Made by a program: the position numbers and the translations under genes. A stretch of DNA of 64,000 nucleotides from Nonomuraea sp. NEAU-A123 (GTDB lineage: Bacteria > Actinomycetota > Actinomycetes > Streptosporangiales > Streptosporangiaceae): NCBI RefSeq assembly GCF_018603905.1, contig NZ_JAHFZZ010000001.1, positions 806,001 to 870,000 on the forward strand, read 5' to 3'. The notes below the pieces were generated by a model. That model saw nothing but the letters and a program-made list of their open reading frames with translations. It did not search any database and was not told the origin of the DNA. Positions 26,921 to 38,122 of this stretch are shown here, one piece after another (position 1 is the first letter of the stretch; each line of letters begins with the position of its first letter).

Positions 26921-29584
26921 TCAGCGCACGCGCGTCTGAGACGCCAGTGTCCCGCCGCCGGTCGCCTGCCACCCGGCCACCACCGTCGGGTGGGCGCCCG
27001 CGGCACGGGTCAGGGGGACGGTCACCGTCGTGGTGCCCCGGCCGGAGACGGTGACGACGCGGCTGCCGGCCGTGCCCTGGTCGTCGCGGACGAACAGGTG
27101 CGCCTTCCCGGCGGCGTTGGCGCGCAACGTCACCTTCACCGCGTTCTGGCCACTCGCGGCGGAGGTCACCCAGCCGCTCTCGGACTCCTTCGCCGCGGGA
27201 CCGCCGGCGAGCGGGAGATGGACGCGGACCGCCTGCTCCAGCGACTGCGGCGAGTCCAGGCTGGACAGGCCGGTGTCGGGGATCACCGGGTCGGGCGGGG
27301 TGGTCGGCCGTCCCGCCGGAGGCTGGTAGCCCGGCAGCGTCGCGACGCCCCACCGGTACGGGTCACCCTGTACGCCACCCCACGTAGACCAGCCGATCCG
27401 GGTCTGGCCGGTCTTGTCCTGGGTGTCGGAGTCGTACACCAGGACGTTGAGCCCGAGGTGCGCGGGATCGACCGCGCCCGGCAGGGTCTCCATCGGGATG
27501 GCCAGCTCGACGTCGTACCCGCCGGTGGAGACCTTCGACGCCACCCGCAGGCCGGTGGCGGGCCCCTGGTGGTTGTCGGCGTCACGTAGGGCGCAGGGCG
27601 GCCCCTCGGCCGTCACCGGCAGCACCGCGGCCTTGAACGTGGTGGAGGTGTTCTCTGACGTGCCGCGCGGGTCGAGGGTCACCTCCACCGAGTCGGTACG
27701 CCAGTGCCGCTTGCAGTCGGACGCGGGCAGGCGGGTGCCGATCACGTCGTCCTTCACGTGGACCACCAGGAACAGCGTGTCGTCCCGCCAGGTGACCTTG
27801 GCCGTGCCGGAGCAGTCCGCCGCCGACGAGCACGCGGTGCCCTCCCACAGGCGGGAGATGTCCAGGGCGGGGCCGGGGTACTCGCCGTCGCCCTCCACGC
27901 CGTCGATCGCGGGCGCCGCCGCGGCCTGCGGGATGGACGCCGCCGGGACCAGTTCGAGCGCGGGCTTGCTCACGCTGGAGCCGTCCGCGCTGGTGGTGGT
28001 GATGGTGTACGCGTAGTCGCCGCCCTGGTTCGAGGTCTTCAGCGAGGGGTCGGAGTTGGTGACGGTGAACGCCACCGTCGTCGAGGCCCCGGCCGCCAGG
28101 CCGCTGTAGGGCGCCTCGGCGCGGTCGGCGGTGAAGCCGGCGGGCAGGTCCAGGCGTACGGTGCCGGACTGGGTGGTGCCGCTCACGTTGGTGACCACGA
28201 CGCCCACCGGCCGGGAGCCGCCGGACGGGAGGGTGAGCACCGGTGTGACCAGGCCGCGGAGCTGCGGCACGCCGAGTTCGGCGGTCCACTTCTCGTACTG
28301 GGCGACCTGGGGGAGCAACTGCTGCCCACCTCGTACGGCCGGGCTGATCTCGACCTGCCGGTCGGTGTAACCGCGTCCGTGTTCGGTGGTCAGCGTGGCC
28401 GCGAGGCGAGCGCGGTCACCCGTGCCCTGGGGCGGGGTCACCGTGAACGTCGCGGATCCCGTACGCCCCTGGGCGATCCTGCCGAGGTCGCCGGAGCCGC
28501 TGACCTGCCAGCCCTCGGGGGCCTTCAGCGCCACGGCCGAGCGGCCCAGCGATTCGCGGGACGGGGCGGTCGCGGTGACCTTGACGGTGAACGCCGTACC
28601 CGGGCGGACGTCGAACGTACTGGGGCGCAGGTCGAGCAGGGTGCCGAGCGGGACGGTGCCCGCCGGGCGGGTCAGCGCGCCGTCGAGGATCGCCGTGGGC
28701 GCGGCCGCCGCCGCGGTGCCCGGCTCGGGGAAGGGCACCCGCGAGTCCACCTGGGTGAAGAAGTCGCAGCCGAGTTGGGCGGGGTCGGACGGTACGTCGG
28801 GGAAGACGGCCCAGCCCTGGGAGGCGTACGAGCGCTGGGCCTCGCGCTCGATGGCGGCCCAGGTCCTGCCCTGGCTCTGGGAGGCGCGTCCGCTCCACAC
28901 GCCGTACACGTTCTGCGCCGGGTTCGCGGGGCGGAACGTCGCGGCGCAGGTGGGGCCGACCTGGGAGGTGCCGCGGCCCCCACCGAGGAACAGGCGGGCG
29001 GGCGCGAAGGGCCGCAGCCCCTCACGGGTGATCTGCTCGGGGAACGCCTTCGGGTCGGCCGCCGCGTAGAACGCCTCGACGGCCAGCCGCGCGGCCTGCT
29101 GGTGGTTCCCGTGGTTGCCGGGGGAGGGGGCCGGATCCATCGTGAGCAGGACCTCGGGGCGGGTCTGGCGGACGATCCGCACGACCTTCTCCAGGGTGTC
29201 CTCCCCCCAGATCTGGTCGGTCAGCGGGGCGCTGACCGTGTAGTAGAAGTCGACGTCGTCGAGGTTGAACACCTCCCGCACACCGGCCTTGCCGACCGCG
29301 GTACGCTCCTCGGCCTCCCGCAGCAGGCCGAGCGCCGGGCCTTCCTCCGGCCCGACGGCGTTGCCGCCGCCCTCGCCCCGGGTGACGGTGACGACGCCGG
29401 TGCGGACGTCGTGGTCCTCGTTCCACTGGCCGAGCGTGGACAGGCTGAACGCCTCGTCGTCGGGATGGGCGCCGACGAAGAGCGCGTCGAGGTCGACGGG
29501 GGGAGCGGGCGCCTGCTCGGCCAGCGCCGGGGTGGTCGGTAAAAAGGCGAGCACAGCCGCGGCGGCCAGTGCCACTATCTTCAT
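26921..29584 (-). CDS. Secreted PIG-L family N-deacetylase with sugar-binding C-terminal domains
   Basis: 887 residues. Signal peptide 1-22 (VALAAAAVLAFLPTTPALAE). PIG-L/LmbE deacetylase domain at ~30-300 with AHPDDE zinc motif, TRGEGGGN and the HGNHQ histidines. After this come NEW3-type beta domains (~330-600: APEGWQVSGSGDLGRI) and a CBM9-like sugar-binding domain (~605-770: AAPAIDGVEGDGEY, VTWRDDTLFLVVHVKDDV), then a beta tail. Length is far above the ~250-residue core. Removes acetyl groups from N-acetylated sugars, here probably extracellular glycans. It follows the ABC permease gene by 15 bases as the last gene of the PfkB/ABC operon. Confidence 0.9.
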   Translation of the reverse strand: MKIVALAAAAVLAFLPTTPALAEQAPAPPVDLDALFVGAHPDDEAFSLSTLGQWNEDHDVRTGVVTVTRGEGGGNAVGPEEGPALGLLREAEERTAVGKAGVREVFNLDDVDFYYTVSAPLTDQIWGEDTLEKVVRIVRQTRPEVLLTMDPAPSPGNHGNHQQAARLAVEAFYAAADPKAFPEQITREGLRPFAPARLFLGGGRGTSQVGPTCAATFRPANPAQNVYGVWSGRASQSQGRTWAAIEREAQRSYASQGWAVFPDVPSDPAQLGCDFFTQVDSRVPFPEPGTAAAAAPTAILDGALTRPAGTVPLGTLLDLRPSTFDVRPGTAFTVKVTATAPSRESLGRSAVALKAPEGWQVSGSGDLGRIAQGRTGSATFTVTPPQGTGDRARLAATLTTEHGRGYTDRQVEISPAVRGGQQLLPQVAQYEKWTAELGVPQLRGLVTPVLTLPSGGSRPVGVVVTNVSGTTQSGTVRLDLPAGFTADRAEAPYSGLAAGASTTVAFTVTNSDPSLKTSNQGGDYAYTITTTSADGSSVSKPALELVPAASIPQAAAAPAIDGVEGDGEYPGPALDISRLWEGTACSSAADCSGTAKVTWRDDTLFLVVHVKDDVIGTRLPASDCKRHWRTDSVEVTLDPRGTSENTSTTFKAAVLPVTAEGPPCALRDADNHQGPATGLRVASKVSTGGYDVELAIPMETLPGAVDPAHLGLNVLVYDSDTQDKTGQTRIGWSTWGGVQGDPYRWGVATLPGYQPPAGRPTTPPDPVIPDTGLSSLDSPQSLEQAVRVHLPLAGGPAAKESESGWVTSAASGQNAVKVTLRANAAGKAHLFVRDDQGTAGSRVVTVSGRGTTTVTVPLTRAAGAHPTVVAGWQATGGGTLASQTRVR

Positions 29585-29599
29585 GGGAACCTCCGGGGG

Positions 29600-30427
29600 T
29601 TATTCGCGGACCGCCCCTTGGAGCAGTCCGCGGACGAAGTGACGCTGGAGGAACAGGTAGAAGATCACCACCGGGGTCGCGACGATGACCGACCCGGCGG
29701 CGAGCAGGGTGAAGCCGGAGGTGTACTGGCCCTGGAAGAAGGCCAGACCCAGCGGCGCGGTCCGCAGCGACTCGCTGGTCACCATGATCAGTGGGATGAG
29801 GAACTCGTTCCACGTCCACATGAAGACCAGGACGGTCAGGGTGACCACGGCGGGCCGGGCCGGCGGCACCAGCACCTGCCACAGGATGCGCCAGGTCGAG
29901 GCGCCGTCGATGCGGGCCGCCTCGACGATGGCCCGGCTGCTGGCGCGGAAGTAGGCCCGCATCCAGAACGTGCCGAACGCCACCGACAACGCGACCTGCG
30001 GCAGCGCGACCGACCAGAACGTGTCGATCAGGCCGAGAGAGCGCAGGTCGAAGTAGAGCGGCACCGCGATGGCCTCGCTCGGCATCATGATCCCGAGCAT
30101 GAACAGGTAGAACAGCACCGACTGGCCGCGGAAGCGCATGGTGCCGAACGCGTACCCGCTCATGATCGACAGCACCACGCTGACCACCACGACGAACGCC
30201 GACACCGCCAGGCTGGTACGCAGGTAGCTCCCGAAGTGCCCGATCTCCCACGCCGCCGAGAAATTTCCCAAGTGCAGCCCCGCCACGCTGAGCCCCTGCC
30301 CGGTGGCGTCGGCGCTGTCGTCGGGGCCGAGCGCGGCGAACAGGATCGACAGGATGGGAAAGAGCGCGAACGCGGCGAACGCCGACAGGATGACGTAGTT
30401 GGCCAGCCGCTCCCCACGCGAGATCAC
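29600..30427 (-). CDS. Carbohydrate ABC transporter permease (MalG-like)
   Basis: 275-residue inner-membrane subunit with six helices. The EAA loop near the C-terminal half (EAARIDGASTWRILWQVLVP) contacts the ATPase. GTG 30427 overlaps the previous permease's stop as GTGA, which settles the start. Second permease of a CUT1-type importer; the ATPase subunit is not encoded here, as usual in actinobacteria where a shared MsiK-type ATPase serves many such importers. Confidence 0.93.
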   Translation of the reverse strand: MISRGERLANYVILSAFAAFALFPILSILFAALGPDDSADATGQGLSVAGLHLGNFSAAWEIGHFGSYLRTSLAVSAFVVVVSVVLSIMSGYAFGTMRFRGQSVLFYLFMLGIMMPSEAIAVPLYFDLRSLGLIDTFWSVALPQVALSVAFGTFWMRAYFRASSRAIVEAARIDGASTWRILWQVLVPPARPAVVTLTVLVFMWTWNEFLIPLIMVTSESLRTAPLGLAFFQGQYTSGFTLLAAGSVIVATPVVIFYLFLQRHFVRGLLQGAVRE

Positions 30428-31308
30428 GAGGCCCCCCTGTCCGCGAAGCGGTTGATCACGAACGAGATCGCGAAGATGATCACCGTCAGGGTTACCCCGA
30501 TCGCCGCCGCCGAACCGATCTGGCTGAGCCCGAAGGCCCGGTGGTAGACCTCGTACGACGGCACCGACGTCGAGTTGCCGGGACCGCCGCGCGTGGTGAT
30601 GTACACCAGGTCGAACGTCCGCAGCGCGGCGATGACGGTCAGCGTCAGCGCGACCGCGATCTCCCCGCGCACCGAGGGCAGCGTGACCGCGAAGAACTCC
30701 TTGACCGCCCCCGCCCCGTCGAGCCGCGCCGCCTCGTACAGCTCCGGCGGGATGCGGCTCATCCCGGCCAGCAGCAGCACGGTCACCAGGCCGGTCTCGA
30801 ACCACGTGCCGACCACGCCGACGGCCGGCAGCGCGAACGTGTAGTCGCCCAGCCAGCCCCTGGTGAGCGAGTCGAGCCCGAGCGCGTCGAGCAGGCCGTT
30901 GAGGGTGCCGTCCGGGGCGTACACGCGCCGCCAGGCGACGGCCACCACGACCATGGCGACCACCTGCGGCAGGAACACCACCGTGCGGAAGAACCCGAGC
31001 CCGCGCACCTTGGCGTGGTTGAGTATCGCGGCCAGCATCAGCCCGATGGCCAGCGGCGCCACCGCGTAGAACCCGACGAGGACCAGGGCGTGGACGAAGG
31101 CGTCACGGAGCCCCTCGTCCGCGACGATCGCCGCGTAGTTGGACAGACCCGCCCACCGGCCGACCGACAGACCGTCCCAGTCGTACAGCGACAACTGCAC
31201 GGCGCGGCCTATCGGATAGAGCAGGAACGCCGCGTAGATGACGAACGCCGGCAGTAAATAGAGGTAGGCGACCCGTCTGGGCTCCCCGGGAGGTCGGGCC
31301 ACGCTCAC
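30424..31308 (-). CDS. Sugar ABC transporter permease (MalF-like)
   Basis: 294-residue membrane subunit, six helices, EAA loop EAARLDGAGAVKEFFAVTLP. GTG 31308 overlaps the binding-protein stop (GTGA), so all three transporter genes are translationally coupled. Partner of the MalG-like permease in a CUT1 importer for an oligosaccharide or glycoside. Confidence 0.93.
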   Translation of the reverse strand: MSVARPPGEPRRVAYLYLLPAFVIYAAFLLYPIGRAVQLSLYDWDGLSVGRWAGLSNYAAIVADEGLRDAFVHALVLVGFYAVAPLAIGLMLAAILNHAKVRGLGFFRTVVFLPQVVAMVVVAVAWRRVYAPDGTLNGLLDALGLDSLTRGWLGDYTFALPAVGVVGTWFETGLVTVLLLAGMSRIPPELYEAARLDGAGAVKEFFAVTLPSVRGEIAVALTLTVIAALRTFDLVYITTRGGPGNSTSVPSYEVYHRAFGLSQIGSAAAIGVTLTVIIFAISFVINRFADRGAS

Positions 31309-32675
31309 CCGTTCGTCTCCGCGAAGGTCTTGTAGTCCTTCTCCAGCGTGGCCAGGAACTCCTGCGGGGTCGCCTTCTTGGCCAGCAGGTCCTGCAGCGC
31401 CGCGCCCAGCGTGTCGGCGAAGGTCGGGGTCGCGTAGTCGAGATAGGGCACCAGGCCGTCGTTCTTGGTCGCGGTGCCGAACGCCTTGAAGACGTCCTGC
31501 TGCGCGCCCGCCTTGACGCTCTGCTGGTCGGTGTCGGCGACCGGCAGGTTGCCGGTGGTGGTGAGCACCTTCATGGCGTCGGCGTTGGTGATGAAGTCGA
31601 TGTACGCCGCCGCCGCGTCGGGGTTGGGGCTCTTGGCCGTGATGGCGAACGGCAGGCCCGTGCCACCGGTCGCGACGGGCGGCGCGTCGGCCGTGGCGCC
31701 GGGCGGCAGTATGAAGCCCAGGTTCTTGCCCAGGACCTTCTCCATGTCGGCCATCAGCCAGGTGCCGCCGATCAGGAAGACGCCCTGGCCCTTGCTGAAC
31801 GCCTGCCACGCCGGGTCATAGCCCTGGCCGTTGAAGCCCTTGTTGAAGTAGCCCTTGTCGACCCAGTCGACGAGCTGCTGGGCGGCCTGGGTGTTCTCGG
31901 GCGTGTTCCACGAGGCGCCCTTGCGGCCGAAGGCCAGCGTGCTGATCTGCGCGGCGGGGACGTTCCGGCCCTGCACGGTGCCGAACACGTGGATGGCCGG
32001 CCACTTGTCGAGGTTGCCGAGCTGCATCGGCACCTCGCCGGCGTCCTTGGCCTTGGCCAGCGCGGCCTGGAACTCCGCCCAGGTCTTCGGCGGCTGCAGG
32101 CCGAGGCCGGTCAGCTTGGCGGCGTTGTAGAAGATGCCGACGACCTCGCCGACCTGGGGCAGGCCGTACAGGTTGCCCTCGCCGAACAGTTTGCCGTCGG
32201 CGCTGTAGCTGGAGTAGCGCAGGACCGAGTCCGGATAGCGCTTCTTCCAGCCGTACGCCTCGGCGTAGGCGTTCAGCGGGCGCAACTGGCCGGCCTTCAC
32301 GAACGCGCCCATCGAGGACCGGCCGTTGTTGGCCTCCACCACGTCCGGCGGTTCGTTGCCGCTCAGCGCCAGGCGCAGGGTGGAGTTGAGGTCGTCGAAG
32401 GAGCGGGAGACCCGTTTGAGCTTGATGTTGGGGTACTTCGCCTCGAACGCGGCGTTGAGCTGCTTCATCTGGGCGGCCTGCCCGCCGCGTACCTCCTGGT
32501 CCCAGATGGTGAGGGTCACGTTGCCGAGGGCCGCGGCGTCGGTGCGCACCGCGCTGGGCGCCGCCGACGAGGCGGTCGTCGGCGGAGCCGAGGAGCCGGG
32601 CGCGCACGCCGTCGCGGCGAGGGCCACGACGGTGGCGGCGAGCACGGCACGCGTGCGAGGCGTCGAGGCGATCAT
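31305..32675 (-). CDS. ABC transporter sugar-binding lipoprotein
   Basis: 456 residues. Lipoprotein signal with cysteine in TACAPG (residue ~24) after an Ala-rich h-region. Family 1 solute-binding fold (TLTIWDQEVRGGQAAQMKQL, DVVEANNGRSSMGAF, GVFLIGGTWLM). ATG 32675 has AAAGGAG eight bases upstream. It captures the substrate outside the membrane and hands it to the two coupled permeases. The PfkB kinase stop lies only four bases upstream of its start. Confidence 0.93.
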   Translation of the reverse strand: MIASTPRTRAVLAATVVALAATACAPGSSAPPTTASSAAPSAVRTDAAALGNVTLTIWDQEVRGGQAAQMKQLNAAFEAKYPNIKLKRVSRSFDDLNSTLRLALSGNEPPDVVEANNGRSSMGAFVKAGQLRPLNAYAEAYGWKKRYPDSVLRYSSYSADGKLFGEGNLYGLPQVGEVVGIFYNAAKLTGLGLQPPKTWAEFQAALAKAKDAGEVPMQLGNLDKWPAIHVFGTVQGRNVPAAQISTLAFGRKGASWNTPENTQAAQQLVDWVDKGYFNKGFNGQGYDPAWQAFSKGQGVFLIGGTWLMADMEKVLGKNLGFILPPGATADAPPVATGGTGLPFAITAKSPNPDAAAAYIDFITNADAMKVLTTTGNLPVADTDQQSVKAGAQQDVFKAFGTATKNDGLVPYLDYATPTFADTLGAALQDLLAKKATPQEFLATLEKDYKTFAETNG

Positions 32676-32679
32676 GGTG

Positions 32680-33915
32680 TTACTCCTTTTGAGCAGGCAC
32701 GCGAGGCGTGTTCGGGTCCTCGGGCTCGTCGAGTGGGCCGCCGGCCTCGGCTGTGGTGCCTTCGGGCGTGGCCGGTGGCTTCCCCGGCATCTGCGGAGCC
32801 ATCCCCACATCGGCGTGCCGGGCGATGGTGGCGGCCGCTCGGCGTACCGCGCCCACCGGGTCGGTGGGCACCAGCTTGTCGAGGAAGGCGTACCGGCGGG
32901 CCAGCGAGTCGCCGTAGGCGCCGCTGTGGCCGGCCGCCGCCCGCACCTCGTGCCACCAGTCGGCGATGTCCCCCCAGCCGGGCGCGGCCAGCGAGCCGCC
33001 GAACTGCTGGACGGCCAGCGCCGAGCAGACCCCGGCGAACGCGAGCCGGTCGTTCAGCGGCCAGCCGCACAGGGTGCCGAGCACGAGCCCCGCGCCGAAG
33101 ACGTCCCCCGCGCCGGTCGGGTCCAGTGCCGTCACCCGCGGAGCCGGGACGAACGCCTCCTCACCCGTCATGGAGTCGATGGCCATGGCGCCGTTGGCCC
33201 CGTCGGTGACCACGGCGAGGGGAACCCGGTCGGCGATCGCGTACAGCGCGTCGCGAGGGGTGTCGGTGCCGGTGTAGGCCATGGCCTCGACCGCGTTGGG
33301 CATGAACGCGTGGCAGACCGAGAGCTGCTCCAGCATGTCGGGCGACCAGGCGCCGGACGGATCCCAGCCCACGTCGGCGAAGATGAGGGCGCCGTCGCGC
33401 TGCGCCAGCTCGGCCCAGTTGCACTTGCCCGGTCCGCCGAGCGGCTCCTCGGCGGACAGCGTCACGATCACCGCCTTGGACCGGGGCGGGGCGCCGATCA
33501 TGTCCGACGCCGACATGGGCGCGGAGTGGCCGTGGGTCACCATGCTGCGGTCACGGTCGACGGCCATGGAGACCGTCACCGGCGAGTGCCAGTTCTCGAA
33601 GCGCCGTGACCTGGACAGGTCAACGGATTCCTGCTCCGCGAGCGTACGCCAGCAGAAGTCGGCGTAGTCGTCGTCCCCGAACGCGGCGGCCAGCGAGGTG
33701 CGCAGGCCCAGCCGGCTGGTCGCGATGGCCAGGTTGGCGATGCCGCCCGGGCACGAGCCCATGCCGTCGGCCCAGATCTCGGTCCCGGCGGCGGGCATCG
33801 CGGCCAGCCCGGTGAACACGATGTCGAGGAAGACCGTGCCCGCTAAGAAGACGTCGAACTGTGGCCCCTCCGGGGTTCGCTGATCGGCTAGAGGGTCGTA
33901 CGCCTGGGCAGACAC
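32680..33915 (-). CDS. PfkB family carbohydrate kinase
   Basis: 411-residue ribokinase-fold sugar or nucleoside kinase. N-terminal glycine motif GSCPGGIANLAIATSRLG and the C-terminal PfkB signature DPTGAGDVFGAGLVLG with catalytic Asp are both present. The last ~60 residues form a Pro/Glu-rich tail beyond the fold, unusual for the family. GTG 33915 with GAGGAGG ten bases upstream is preferred over a longer frame. First gene of the operon, divergent from deoR-type regulator. In context it may phosphorylate the imported glycoside before the GH4 enzyme cleaves it. Confidence 0.9.
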   Translation of the reverse strand: MSAQAYDPLADQRTPEGPQFDVFLAGTVFLDIVFTGLAAMPAAGTEIWADGMGSCPGGIANLAIATSRLGLRTSLAAAFGDDDYADFCWRTLAEQESVDLSRSRRFENWHSPVTVSMAVDRDRSMVTHGHSAPMSASDMIGAPPRSKAVIVTLSAEEPLGGPGKCNWAELAQRDGALIFADVGWDPSGAWSPDMLEQLSVCHAFMPNAVEAMAYTGTDTPRDALYAIADRVPLAVVTDGANGAMAIDSMTGEEAFVPAPRVTALDPTGAGDVFGAGLVLGTLCGWPLNDRLAFAGVCSALAVQQFGGSLAAPGWGDIADWWHEVRAAAGHSGAYGDSLARRYAFLDKLVPTDPVGAVRRAAATIARHADVGMAPQMPGKPPATPEGTTAEAGGPLDEPEDPNTPRVPAQKE

Positions 33916-33965
33916 GGAACTAAGACCTCCTCGACAGAGCGAGATGTGCGCAATCTTGCATGTTT

Positions 33966-33995
33966 GCTCGCGCACTTCAAGTGTTTGGCGCGAGC
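33966..33995. promoter_or_regulatory. Nested palindrome between kinase and DeoR genes, operator candidate
   Basis: GCTCGCGC (33966-33973) and GCGCGAGC (33988-33995) are perfect 8-base inverted arms; inside lies CACTT-C-AAGTG, a second palindrome. Lies in the 132-base divergent promoter region, so the DeoR regulator next door is the obvious candidate to bind it. Confidence 0.55.
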
Positions 33996-34047
33996 TTTTG
34001 GTCAATGATGCTCACTCATGCGCGGATATGACTGATACGATGCCCCC

Positions 34048-34806
34048 GTGCTTCAGCGCCTCAGGCATGCCGAGATCATGCGCCGGGTCCGCCTCTCAGG
34101 CGCCACCAGCGTTCGCGATCTGGCCAGCCAGCTCGGCGTGAGCCCGTCGACCATCCGCCGCGACCTCGAGGTGCTCGACCGCGACGGCACGCTGAGGCGC
34201 GTGCGCGGCGGCGCCCTCGCCGAGGTCGACGCCGACACCGACCGGCCCTTCGCCGAGGTGGCGGGCGTCGACGAGCAGGACAAGGAGGCCGTGGCCGGCC
34301 GCGCCGCGCAGATCGTCCGCGACGGCGACGTGGTCCTGCTCGACATCGGGACGACGACGATGCGCCTGGCCCGCCGGCTCCGTGGCCGCCGCATCACCGT
34401 GGTCACCTCCAGCCTCGCCGTCCTCGACGTGCTCCGCACCGACCCGGCGGTCGAGCTACTGCTGCTCGGCGGCATGGTCCGCCGGACATACCACTCGCTG
34501 GTCGGGGTGCTGACCGAGGAGGCGCTGCGCCAGGTCTGCGCCGACCGCGTGTTCCTGGGCGTGAGCGGCGTCCGGCCGGACGGCCAGCTCGTCGACACCA
34601 CGCTCGCCGAGGTGCCGCTGAAGCGGGCCATGATCGCGGCGGCGGGCCAGGTGGTATTACTCGCCGACCGGCAGAAGTTCCCCGGCACCGGCGCGCTGCG
34701 GGTGTGCGGTCCCGAAGACATCGACGTGATCGTCACGAACGAGGGCGCCGACGCGACGACGCTGCGCAACTGCGCGGCCGCGGGTGCCGAGGTGCAGGTC
34801 GTGTGA
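34048..34806 (+). CDS. DeoR/GlpR family transcriptional repressor
   Basis: 252 residues. DeoR HTH at ~5-60 (RHAEIMRRVRLSGATSVRDL, VSPSTIRRDLEVLDR) and a sugar-phosphate-sensing C-terminal domain (~75-245) with LDIGTTTMRLARRL and LLGGMVRRTYHSLVG. GTG start at 34048. Divergent from the PfkB/ABC/deacetylase operon and 10 bases before the GH4 gene, so it very likely controls both and senses a phosphorylated sugar made in the pathway. Confidence 0.93.
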   Translation: MLQRLRHAEIMRRVRLSGATSVRDLASQLGVSPSTIRRDLEVLDRDGTLRRVRGGALAEVDADTDRPFAEVAGVDEQDKEAVAGRAAQIVRDGDVVLLDIGTTTMRLARRLRGRRITVVTSSLAVLDVLRTDPAVELLLLGGMVRRTYHSLVGVLTEEALRQVCADRVFLGVSGVRPDGQLVDTTLAEVPLKRAMIAAAGQVVLLADRQKFPGTGALRVCGPEDIDVIVTNEGADATTLRNCAAAGAEVQVV

Positions 34807-34816
34807 AGGGGTGGCG

Positions 34817-36157
34817 ATGAGACTGACCGTCCTCGGCGGCGGCGGCTTCCGGGTCCCGCTGGTCTACGGCGCGCTGCTGCGCGACACCGCCAAGCCGCGC
34901 GTGGAGGAGGTGATGCTGTACGACGTGTCGGCGGACCGGCTGGCCGCCATCCGGCACGTGCTCCAGCAACTCGCCGCCGGGCACGACGACCCGCCCAAGG
35001 TGCTGACCACCACCGACCTGGACACCGCGCTGCGGGATGCCACCTTCGTCTTCTCGGCGATCCGCGTCGGCGGCCTGGCGGGCCGCACCGCCGATGAGCG
35101 GGTCGCGCTGGAGCTGGGCCTGCTCGGTCAGGAGACGACCGGGCCCGGCGGCATCGCCTACGGCCTGCGTACGATCCCGGTCGCCGTCCGGGTGGCCGAG
35201 CGGGTGGCCGCCGTCGCGCCCCAGGCGTGGGTGATCAACTTCACCAACCCGGCCGGCATGATCACCGAGGCCATGCGGAGCGTGCTCGGCGATCGGGTGG
35301 TCGGCATCTGCGACTCGCCGATCGGGCTGATCCGCCGCGCCGCCGCCGCCCTCGGCCTCGACCCGGCGCGCGTGTCGCCCGACTACGTAGGGCTGAACCA
35401 TCTCGGCTGGCTGCGCGGGCTCTCCTACCAGGGCCGCGACGTGCTGCCCGACCTGCTCGCCGACGACGTGGCGCTGCGGCAGGTCGAGGAGGCCCGGATC
35501 TTCGGCGGCGACTGGGTGCGGACTCTGGGAGCGCTGCCCAACGAGTATCTGTACTACTACTACTTCACCCGCGAGTCCGTCGCCGCCATCTCCGGGCAGA
35601 CCCGTGGCGAGTCCCTGCTCGGGCAGCAGGACCGGTTCTACGCGGCCGTGCGCGAGCGGCCCGAGCACGCCCTGGCCGAGTGGGGCAGGGCACGCAGCGA
35701 GCGCGACGCGTCGTACATGGCCGACACCCGCGAGATCACCGACGCCGGCGAGCGTGACGCCGCCGACCTGGAGGCGGGCGGCTACGAAGGCATCGCGCTC
35801 GCCCTCATGGCCGCCATCGCCCGCGGTGAGCCCTCCACCATGATCCTCAACGTCCGCAACGGCACAGCGGTGCCCGGCCTGCCCGCGGAGGCGGTCGTCG
35901 AGATCCCCTGCGCGGTGGACGGCTCCGGGATCCGGCCGCTGGCCACCCGCCCGCTCCCCGGCCGGTTCCTCGGGCTCGTGCAGCAGGTGAAGGCGGTCGA
36001 GCAGACGGCCATCGAGGCCGCCATGTCGGGCTCGTCCCGCCTGGCCGTCGAGGCGTTCGCCCTGCACCCACTGGTCGACTCCGTCGGCACGGCACGCAAG
36101 CTGCTCGACGGCTACCGGGCCCGCATCCCGGAGCTGGCCGCCGTCCTTCACTCGTAG
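34817..36157 (+). CDS. GH4 family NAD-dependent glycosidase (6-phospho-beta-glucosidase type)
   Basis: 446 residues. N-terminal Rossmann motif LGGGGFRVP, metal-binding Cys in GICDSPIG and His in GLNHLGWLRG, and the YYYYF segment, all typical of GH4 6-phospho-beta-glucosidases, which hydrolyse by a NAD/Mn2+ redox-elimination route. ATG 34817 follows AAGGGGTGG. Co-transcribed with the DeoR regulator. GH4 6-phospho enzymes usually pair with a PTS, but here an ABC importer and a PfkB kinase are the partners, so phosphorylation after uptake is a reasonable model. Confidence 0.92.
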   Translation: MRLTVLGGGGFRVPLVYGALLRDTAKPRVEEVMLYDVSADRLAAIRHVLQQLAAGHDDPPKVLTTTDLDTALRDATFVFSAIRVGGLAGRTADERVALELGLLGQETTGPGGIAYGLRTIPVAVRVAERVAAVAPQAWVINFTNPAGMITEAMRSVLGDRVVGICDSPIGLIRRAAAALGLDPARVSPDYVGLNHLGWLRGLSYQGRDVLPDLLADDVALRQVEEARIFGGDWVRTLGALPNEYLYYYYFTRESVAAISGQTRGESLLGQQDRFYAAVRERPEHALAEWGRARSERDASYMADTREITDAGERDAADLEAGGYEGIALALMAAIARGEPSTMILNVRNGTAVPGLPAEAVVEIPCAVDGSGIRPLATRPLPGRFLGLVQQVKAVEQTAIEAAMSGSSRLAVEAFALHPLVDSVGTARKLLDGYRARIPELAAVLHS

Positions 36158-37062: not shown

Positions 37063-37273
37063 TGTTGTGCTCCTGAAAGGCGAGGGGTGAGTGGAGCGTG
37101 GCTCGACAATAGCAAGCAGGCCCTGTCGCGGCCCTTTCGCGCCGCTGTCGTGTCCAGCGAGATCGGTCCGTGGTAGCCAAGCCGGTTCGTGCGGTCCGCG
37201 GTGCAGCCAGGTCGGTGGGTGCTGTCCGAATACGGCCAGCCAAGTCGATCGTCTGCCTCGTACGGTCGGTGCC

Positions 37274-38122
37274 ATGACCCGACGCGAGCCCATCAACCCG
37301 CAACGACAGATCCGCCAGGCGGAGACATTCGCCGGCCTGCACCGACACGGCGACCCGCTGCTGCTGGCCAACGCCTGGGACGTCGCCTCGGCACTCACCG
37401 TCGTCCACGCCGGCGCCAAGGCCGTCGCCACCACCAGTGCCGGCGTCGCCTGGTCCCTCGGCGTGCCCGACGCCGCCGACCTGGGCGTGGACCGAGCCGC
37501 GGCGGCCATCGAACGCATCACGGCGGCGGTCGGCGTACCGGTCTCGGCCGACATCGAAGCCGGTTACGGACCTGAGCCCGAGGCCGTGGCCGCCACGATC
37601 ACGGCCGTCGTCCAGGCCGGAGCCGTCGGGGTGAATCTCGAAGACCGCCGCGGACCCGGCCTGTTCGAGCCCGCCGAACAGGCCGACCGGCTGGCCGCGG
37701 CCCGCGCCGCCGCCGACCGCCTGGCCGTACCCGTGTGGATCAATGCCCGAACGGACGTGTTCCTGACCGCTGACGGTCCGGTCAAAAAGCTGGAGGCGGT
37801 ACAGGAGCGAGCCGTCGCCTACGCGGCGGCCGGTGCGGACAGCCTGTTCGTCCCCGGCCTGATCGACCTGGAGGCGATCGCCGAGCTGGCGGCCGGGCCG
37901 CTGCCGATCGCGGTGATGGTGTGGGCCGGCGCCCCGACGGTGTCCGAACTGGCCGCGGTCGGCGCGGTCCGCATCAGCCTCGGCTCCGCGATCGCCCAGG
38001 CCGCGTACGCCGTCGCCGCCCGCGCCACGACGGAGCTCCTGGAGCACGGCACGTACGACTCGACCGCCGACGGGATCCCGTACGGCACCATGAACGACCT
38101 CCTCGAGACGCCTGCCGGATGA
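37274..38122 (+). CDS. Isocitrate lyase/PEP mutase family enzyme
   Basis: 282-residue (beta/alpha)8 enzyme of the ICL/PEPM superfamily. Landmarks: AKAVATTSAGVAWSLGVPD, SADIEAGYG with the Mg-binding acidic residues, GVNLEDR, and INARTDVFL. The KKCGH loop cysteine of true isocitrate lyases is missing, so it belongs to the PEP mutase / C-C bond lyase side of the family (oxaloacetate hydrolase or methylisocitrate-lyase-like). Substrate not known. Divergent from the DUF1772 gene; start ATG 37274. Confidence 0.9.
   Translation: MTRREPINPQRQIRQAETFAGLHRHGDPLLLANAWDVASALTVVHAGAKAVATTSAGVAWSLGVPDAADLGVDRAAAAIERITAAVGVPVSADIEAGYGPEPEAVAATITAVVQAGAVGVNLEDRRGPGLFEPAEQADRLAAARAAADRLAVPVWINARTDVFLTADGPVKKLEAVQERAVAYAAAGADSLFVPGLIDLEAIAELAAGPLPIAVMVWAGAPTVSELAAVGAVRISLGSAIAQAAYAVAARATTELLEHGTYDSTADGIPYGTMNDLLETPAG

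What the first reader, a model, noticed from the sequence alone, without database searches (positions are those of the whole stretch)
26921..36157. Sugar locus joining a secreted deacetylase, ABC import, PfkB kinase and a GH4 glycosidase
GH4 phospho-glycosidases usually follow a PTS; here the only kinase is PfkB-like and uptake is by ABC. The last operon gene is a secreted PIG-L deacetylase with CBM9-like binding domains. A route of extracellular deacetylation, import, phosphorylation by PfkB and redox-elimination cleavage would be new to me.
Basis: inference. Interest (0 to 1): 0.6.

Follow-up and report, generated by a model that had tools for sequence, protein, structure and literature searches.

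The report
Actinobacterial amino-sugar glycoside uptake locus
A seven-gene set in soil actinobacteria looks built to strip the acyl group from an N-acyl amino-sugar compound outside the cell, import it, phosphorylate it and split it by an unusual redox reaction; each step has known parallels, but the whole set and its real substrate appear uncharacterised.

Summary
The genes are real: a secreted PIG-L/CBM9 protein, two ABC permeases, a solute-binding lipoprotein and a PfkB kinase on the minus strand, facing a DeoR regulator and a GH4 glycosidase. The set is conserved: 30 of 34 named loci and 26 of 34 class-wide loci carry it, mostly in one order. GH4 plus PfkB is the older core. GH4 keeps 8 of 9 subsite residues of the phospho-enzyme ChbF and folds nearest 6-phospho-glucosidases, so phosphorylate-then-cleave is favoured. 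Novelty is partial: ABC plus GH4 plus kinase is known (csnREFGHK), and deacetylase plus GH4 is known (E. coli chb). New here are neighbours that hint at products: a nagB-like gene beside the set in one genus, nagB in a related locus without PIG-L, and inositol-catabolism genes near the set in three genera. That suggests a GlcNAc-inositol type substrate, mycothiol being one candidate. The inositol link is modest (iolB within 25 kb in 2 of 31 genomes). Alpha or beta linkage is undecided. No activity was tested.

The parts
26921..29584 (-). secreted PIG-L-family amidase/deacetylase with NEW3 and CBM9_1 domains; last gene of the minus-strand unit
   Evidence: Pfam; H40, D42, D43, H158, H161 invariant in 16 sequences; signal peptide read by eye from the sequence
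29600..30427 (-). ABC sugar permease (MalG type)
   Evidence: Pfam; start
30424..31308 (-). ABC sugar permease (MalF type); exact start uncertain
   Evidence: Pfam; start
31305..32675 (-). ABC solute-binding lipoprotein
   Evidence: Pfam; ATG 32675 with upstream AGGAG, LAATAC lipobox read by eye; best NCBIfam match NgcE 97.6 bits, far under its cut-off of 399.65
32680..33915 (-). PfkB-family sugar kinase; first gene of the minus-strand unit
   Evidence: Pfam; no NCBIfam model over its cut-off; GTG 33915 preceded by GGAGG
33945..33965 (+). conserved intergenic site TGTGCGCAATCTTGCAYGTTT, possible promoter or DeoR operator
   Evidence: consensus of 28 aligned loci, 8 rows printed; single site in the whole genome at up to 3 mismatches, reversed-pattern control 0
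34048..34806 (+). DeoR/GlpR-type regulator
   Evidence: Pfam
34817..36157 (+). GH4 glycosidase, NAD/metal type, phospho-glycosidase residues
   Evidence: Pfam; residue mapping; tree and motifs; AlphaFold model pLDDT 92; fold comparison

Best explanation
The locus takes up and breaks down a glycoside that ends in N-acetylglucosamine or a similar N-acyl amino sugar. The secreted PIG-L protein removes the N-acyl group outside the cell, leaving a free-amine glycoside. The binding protein and two permeases import it, using an ATPase encoded elsewhere. The PfkB kinase phosphorylates the amino sugar at O6 with ATP, replacing a PTS. GH4 splits the 6-phospho-glycoside by NAD-dependent oxidation and elimination, giving glucosamine-6-phosphate and an aglycone. 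DeoR controls both units from the shared gap. Shown: the gene set, its conservation, the GH4 phospho-type residues and fold, and intact PIG-L metal-ligand residues. Inferred: every reaction, the order of steps, the regulation and the substrate. In some lineages the aglycone may be myo-inositol. The first two rivals below are specific forms of this route.
For: Same set (PIG-L, two permeases, SBP, PfkB, GH4; DeoR usually) in 30 of 34 named loci; L092, L095, L096 are cut by contig starts and L107 lacks it. In 26 of 34 class loci; L161 is cut and 7 hold a PIG-L relative without the set. Kept but rearranged in Pseudokineococcus L104, and with another GH4 subtype in Actinomadura viridilutea L105 and in L145. 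Full-length PIG-L in 31 of 394 class genomes; 28 of these 31 are among the 93 of 394 with this GH4 clade. GH4 keeps R96, E112, T113, N150, C172, H203, Y258, R282 of ChbF (N173 becomes D; numbers of Salmonella ChbF mapped on E. coli ChbF); MelA has T, D and H at 96, 112 and 173. GH4 model: Z 45.5-47.7 to 6-phospho-(beta-)glucosidases, 41.8-43.0 to 6-phospho-alpha-glucosidases, 30.5-38.1 to other GH4 chains. A nagB-like gene (under cut-off) overlaps the PIG-L stop by 4 bp in L160/L161, one genus; nagB over cut-off follows the permeases of a GH4-DeoR-PfkB locus without PIG-L, L203. Literature: ChbF cuts only after ChbG removes the non-reducing-end acetyl (passage).
Against: No enzyme was assayed. 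PfkB matches no NCBIfam model over cut-off, so it could phosphorylate a released sugar. The window's own genome gave no nagB match at E 0.001, and only 3 of 33 genomes passed the nagB cut-off, so the fate of GlcN-6-P there is open. PIG-L could be an amidase for another acyl group. In many genomes GH4 and PfkB stand without ABC genes or PIG-L within the stretches fetched, so the substrate need not always come from outside by this importer.
Confidence: 0.55

Rival explanations
1. Mycothiol or GlcNAc-inositol scavenging: PIG-L (superfamily of MshB and Mca) frees GlcN-Ins outside; GH4 cuts GlcN-6P-inositol into GlcN-6P and myo-inositol. A specific form of the best explanation.
For: Clustering of flanking proteins put iolG, iolB and iolD in three genera, A. 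viridilutea L105, G373 and G388 (run after iol genes had been seen in L105 and L175). In G388 GH4 is followed on the same strand about 50 bp later by iolB, then iolD, iolE-like, iolG (iolB, iolD, iolG over cut-off). L105 has iolB and iolC over cut-off; G373 has iolB, iolD and iolC over cut-off on the two sides of the set. PIG-L relatives act on GlcNAc-inositols (review passages). GH4 motif CDSP...NHLGW resembles 6-phospho-alpha-glucosidases, while the beta enzymes seen have CN[VI]P...NHMV. One paper cites a 2007 study for mycothiol as a possible carbon and sulfur reservoir (passage; the study's title seen in reference lists).
Against: iolB lies within 25 kb of GH4 in 2 of 31 genomes of the PIG-L group that have iolB (about 0.24 expected by a rough estimate) and in 0 of 54 genomes with this GH4 but no PIG-L. 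In G373 unrelated genes lie between; in L105 a GntR gene lies between PIG-L and the iol genes. The iolG models are under cut-off in L105 and G373. The GH4 fold is nearer beta enzymes. A CBM9 domain may point to a polymer or surface target.
Confidence: 0.25
2. Chitin/chitosan oligosaccharide use, a csn/chb-like route for beta-1,4-linked GlcNAc or GlcN dimers. Also a specific form of the best explanation.
For: Same building blocks as csnREFGHK (passages) and same deacetylase-GH4 logic as chb (passage); SBP best match NgcE, far under cut-off; a PIG-L enzyme, TkDAC, deacetylates diacetylchitobiose (passage); GH4 fold nearest 6-phospho-beta-glucosidases; L074 has this GH4 and PfkB beside GH9 and a BadF kinase.
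Against: The own genome has another locus of csn-like make-up, L063: ROK, SBP, GH4 with CNVA motif, BadF-type kinase; L064 is similar by clustering, its kinase not seen. No chitinase or chitosanase showed up among the neighbours I scanned, but I did not search for them. Inositol genes near three relatives would be unexplained.
Confidence: 0.25
3. GH4 acts on the unphosphorylated glycoside and PfkB phosphorylates the released sugar or the aglycone.
For: Non-phospho GH4 enzymes exist; in own-genome locus L061 a MelA-type GH4 also sits with PfkB and GH114.
Against: Residues and fold comparison place this GH4 with phospho-enzymes, unlike L061.
Confidence: 0.15

Closest known systems
csnREFGHK operon of Streptomyces (chitosan oligosaccharides)
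   [quoted passage not shown] no PTS; described as conserved in many actinomycetes (passages)
   Different: ROK regulator instead of DeoR; no deacetylase in the described cluster; in the csn-like locus L063 of this genome the kinase is BadF type and GH4 has a CNVA motif. No csn sequence itself was compared.
chbBCARFG operon of E. coli
   Same: deacetylase paired with a GH4; GH4 needs the non-reducing-end sugar 6-phosphorylated and deacetylated (passages; genes)
   Different: PTS import and phosphorylation; ChbG works on the phosphorylated disaccharide inside the cell; here PIG-L would act first and outside
LmbE/PIG-L superfamily (MshB, Mca, PIG-L, TkDAC)
   Same: PIG-L domain with the HPDD motif and a later His
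   Different: secreted (by eye), 887 residues with NEW3 and CBM9 domains; similar weak scores to BshB1, Mca and MshB models (40.4, 36.4, 33.9 bits), all far under cut-off
Sinorhizobium meliloti pSymB locus (GntR-GH4-carbohydrate kinase-ABC)
   Same: GH4, carbohydrate kinase family protein and ABC importer in one direction
   Different: no PIG-L in the stretch shown; own ATPase; different GH4 branch; function not known to me

Membership tests
GH4 (phospho-glycosidase type) | Glyco_hydro_4 and 4C domains | tested here: met
GH4 (phospho-glycosidase type) | metal Cys and His and the ChbF -1 subsite residues | tested here: met
   8 of 9 conserved, N173 to D; list of residues from PMC13197890 (passage)
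GH4 (phospho-glycosidase type) | activity only on 6-phosphorylated substrate | not testable with these tools
   no assay; fold and residues agree
csnREFGHK operon | ABC importer plus GH4 plus kinase | tested here: met
csnREFGHK operon | ROK-family regulator CsnR | tested here: not met
   regulator is DeoR type; a csn-like locus with a ROK gene lies elsewhere in the genome
chb operon | deacetylase-family gene and GH4 in one gene set | tested here: met
chb operon | PTS components and ChbG-type deacetylase | tested here: not met
   ABC and PIG-L genes instead
LmbE/PIG-L superfamily | PIG-L domain with HPDD and a second His | tested here: met
   Pfam 75.3 bits against 28.2; residues invariant in 16 sequences
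LmbE/PIG-L superfamily | de-N-acylation of an amino sugar | not testable with these tools
   no assay
mycothiol or GlcN-inositol catabolism | cleavage of GlcN-inositol | not testable with these tools
   only gene neighbourhood

The most novel reading that the evidence does not exclude
A widespread actinobacterial locus for foraging on GlcNAc-inositol compounds, with mycothiol as the prime candidate: outside de-N-acylation by a secreted MshB/Mca relative, import of GlcN-inositol, ATP-driven 6-phosphorylation and GH4 cleavage into GlcN-6-phosphate for NagB and myo-inositol for the Iol pathway.
Probability: 0.2. Interest if true: 0.8.

Novelty: new variant of a known kind. Interest (0 to 1): 0.5.

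Why it matters
It defines a conserved gene set that couples outside de-N-acylation to a PTS-free phospho-GH4 route and gives concrete substrates to test. If the inositol reading holds, it would name enzymes for splitting the glucosamine-inositol bond, that is, how actinobacteria could live off the thiol of their dead neighbours.

Tried and rejected
Plain membership in csn was rejected: DeoR instead of ROK, and a csn-like locus lies elsewhere in the same genome. A wider regulon read from the intergenic site led nowhere: one site in the genome. Foldseek with the whole PIG-L model gave, in the 50 rows shown, only large unrelated multi-domain proteins at TM (query) near 0.1; the model has several domains and pLDDT 73, so this says nothing about the catalytic domain. 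Alpha or beta linkage could not be settled: motifs resemble the alpha type, overall fold the beta type, and the single alpha row is a long branch in the tree. The xylA control for chance adjacency: nearest 132 kb among 29 genomes with both genes. Contigs are many in several assemblies, so adjacency across contig ends is missed. A lead on S. meliloti Smb21216-21221 (passages) could not be tied to L217 and was dropped. Literature searches listed, in the rows shown, nothing that describes the whole set or GlcN-inositol cleavage by GH4; subscription papers are mostly not held. In the synteny tables overlapping weaker hits were dropped, and hits at 38% identity or less were hidden except for GH4, PfkB and SBP. 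In L173 the GH4 match is in three pieces.
Full report
What is there. Window 26921-36157 holds a five-gene minus-strand unit (PfkB, solute-binding lipoprotein, two permeases, secreted PIG-L/NEW3/CBM9 protein) facing DeoR and GH4 on the plus strand. The host is probably a Nonomuraea: its PIG-L protein is 96% identical to that of N. guangzhouensis and the genome has 12.7 Mb. No ABC ATPase is in the locus; the genome has seven OB_MalK matches, five over cut-off.

Conservation. A scan of named genomes with the PIG-L alignment, using two peptide patterns, returned 34 loci, 29 of them titled Nonomuraea. Of these 34, 30 carry PfkB, SBP, both permeases and a GH4 beside PIG-L; L092, L095 and L096 are cut by contig starts; L107 (Mobilicoccus) lacks the set. 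L104 (Pseudokineococcus, 54-70% identity) keeps the set with PIG-L moved next to the GH4 end. L105 (Actinomadura viridilutea) has a GH4 of another subtype at 32% identity and no DeoR match. In a class-wide sample, full-length PIG-L (E 1e-30) was in 31 of 394 genomes. I fetched 34 loci from the 28 of these outside the own genus: 26 loci, one in each of 26 genomes, show the set (two without a DeoR match, one with the other GH4 subtype, one with GH4 in pieces); L161 is cut; L152, L157, L158, L159, L162, L163 and L164 hold a PIG-L relative without the set.

The core. This GH4 clade (E 1e-100) is in 93 of 394 class genomes, and 28 of those are among the 31 with PIG-L. In 26 clade loci of the family (L041-L060, L071-L076) PfkB lies beside GH4 in 24; the misses are L050 and L051. 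In 20 further loci from 19 genomes without PIG-L it does in 17; the misses are L197, L198 and L199. So GH4 plus PfkB is the common core, and ABC genes and PIG-L come on top. Loci with the ABC genes but no PIG-L (L056, L201, L205, L206, L213), or with GH2, GH38 and/or GH29 genes (L052, L055, L200), may serve other substrates.

GH4 type. Mapped on E. coli ChbF, eight of the nine -1 subsite residues that PMC13197890 lists for Salmonella ChbF are kept, with N173 changed to D; MelA and own-genome L061 lack R96 and E112. phmmer finds 6-phospho-glucosidases first. The AlphaFold model (pLDDT 92) gives Z 45.5-47.7 with 6-phospho-(beta-)glucosidases, 41.8-43.0 with 6-phospho-alpha-glucosidases and 30.5-38.1 with other GH4 chains. 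The CDSP...NHLGW motif, however, resembles 6-phospho-alpha-glucosidases. Phospho-specificity is likely; the anomer is undecided.

PIG-L. Residues H40, D42, D43, H158 and H161 are invariant in 16 sequences down to 58% identity; the review gives a His2-Asp metal site and an Asp base for this superfamily, and substrates that include GlcNAc-inositols and diacetylchitobiose (passages). Scores to the BshB1, Mca and MshB models are all weak.

Product hints. In L160 and L161 (one genus) a nagB-like gene overlaps the PIG-L stop by 4 bp; its models are under cut-off (255 bits against 326; 181 against 237). In L203, another family and without PIG-L, nagB follows the permeases and passes its cut-off. Against this, the own genome showed no nagB match and only 3 of 33 genomes passed the cut-off. 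I first saw inositol genes in L105 and L175. Flanks of 11 genomes, L104, L105, L107 and the window were then clustered without choosing a pathway: iolG, iolB and iolD were shared by A. viridilutea, G373 and G388. Other clusters shared by three or four groups were two gene families shared by genomes of one family (one of them also in Mobilicoccus), ABC ATPases, GntR regulators, response regulators and relatives of the set's own genes. In G388 iolB, iolD, an iolE-like gene and iolG follow GH4 on the same strand, iolB about 50 bp after it. Of 85 genomes with both genes, iolB lies 0.9 kb (G388), 21 kb (G373) and 46 kb (G318) from GH4, then 148 kb or more or on another contig; about 0.24 would be expected within 25 kb in the 31 genomes of the PIG-L group. 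For xylA the nearest is 132 kb in 29 genomes. The link is suggestive, not proven.

Literature. csnREFGHK (PMC6097792, PMC5635096; passages) and chb (PMC13197890, PMC12791066; passages) are the closest. PMC8196931 cites a 2007 paper for mycothiol as a possible carbon and sulfur reservoir (passage); of that paper I saw only the title in reference lists, and it is not held.

Verdict. The route is a new combination of known parts. The most likely working is outside de-N-acylation, ABC import, PfkB phosphorylation and GH4 cleavage to GlcN-6-phosphate; the aglycone, possibly inositol, has to be tested.

Noticed in passing
L061:8853-15116 (own genome, contig C77): GH114 protein, solute-binding protein, permeases, PfkB and a MelA-type GH4 in one stretch: a possible polygalactosamine utilisation locus.
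   Followed up: partly
L063:8243-14896 and L064 (own genome, C45 and C67): L063 has csn-like make-up: ROK, SBP, GH4 with CNVA motif, BadF-type kinase. L064 is similar by clustering, kinase not seen.
   Followed up: partly
L157:6095-11469; by eye similar in L159 and L163: A second PIG-L/CBM9 protein with a Tat-like start (by eye) beside a ROK-type gene and an ABC binding protein nearest to phosphonate-type models, all under cut-off.
   Followed up: no
L052, L055, L200: The same GH4 clade with PfkB and permeases next to GH2, GH38 and/or GH29 genes and, in L052, an iolE-like protein under cut-off.
   Followed up: partly
L074:3084-15996: This GH4 and PfkB with a second GH4, GH9, a BadF-type kinase and an SBP_bac_5 binding protein.
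   Followed up: no
window 37091-38122: PEP-mutase family protein near the locus.
   Followed up: no
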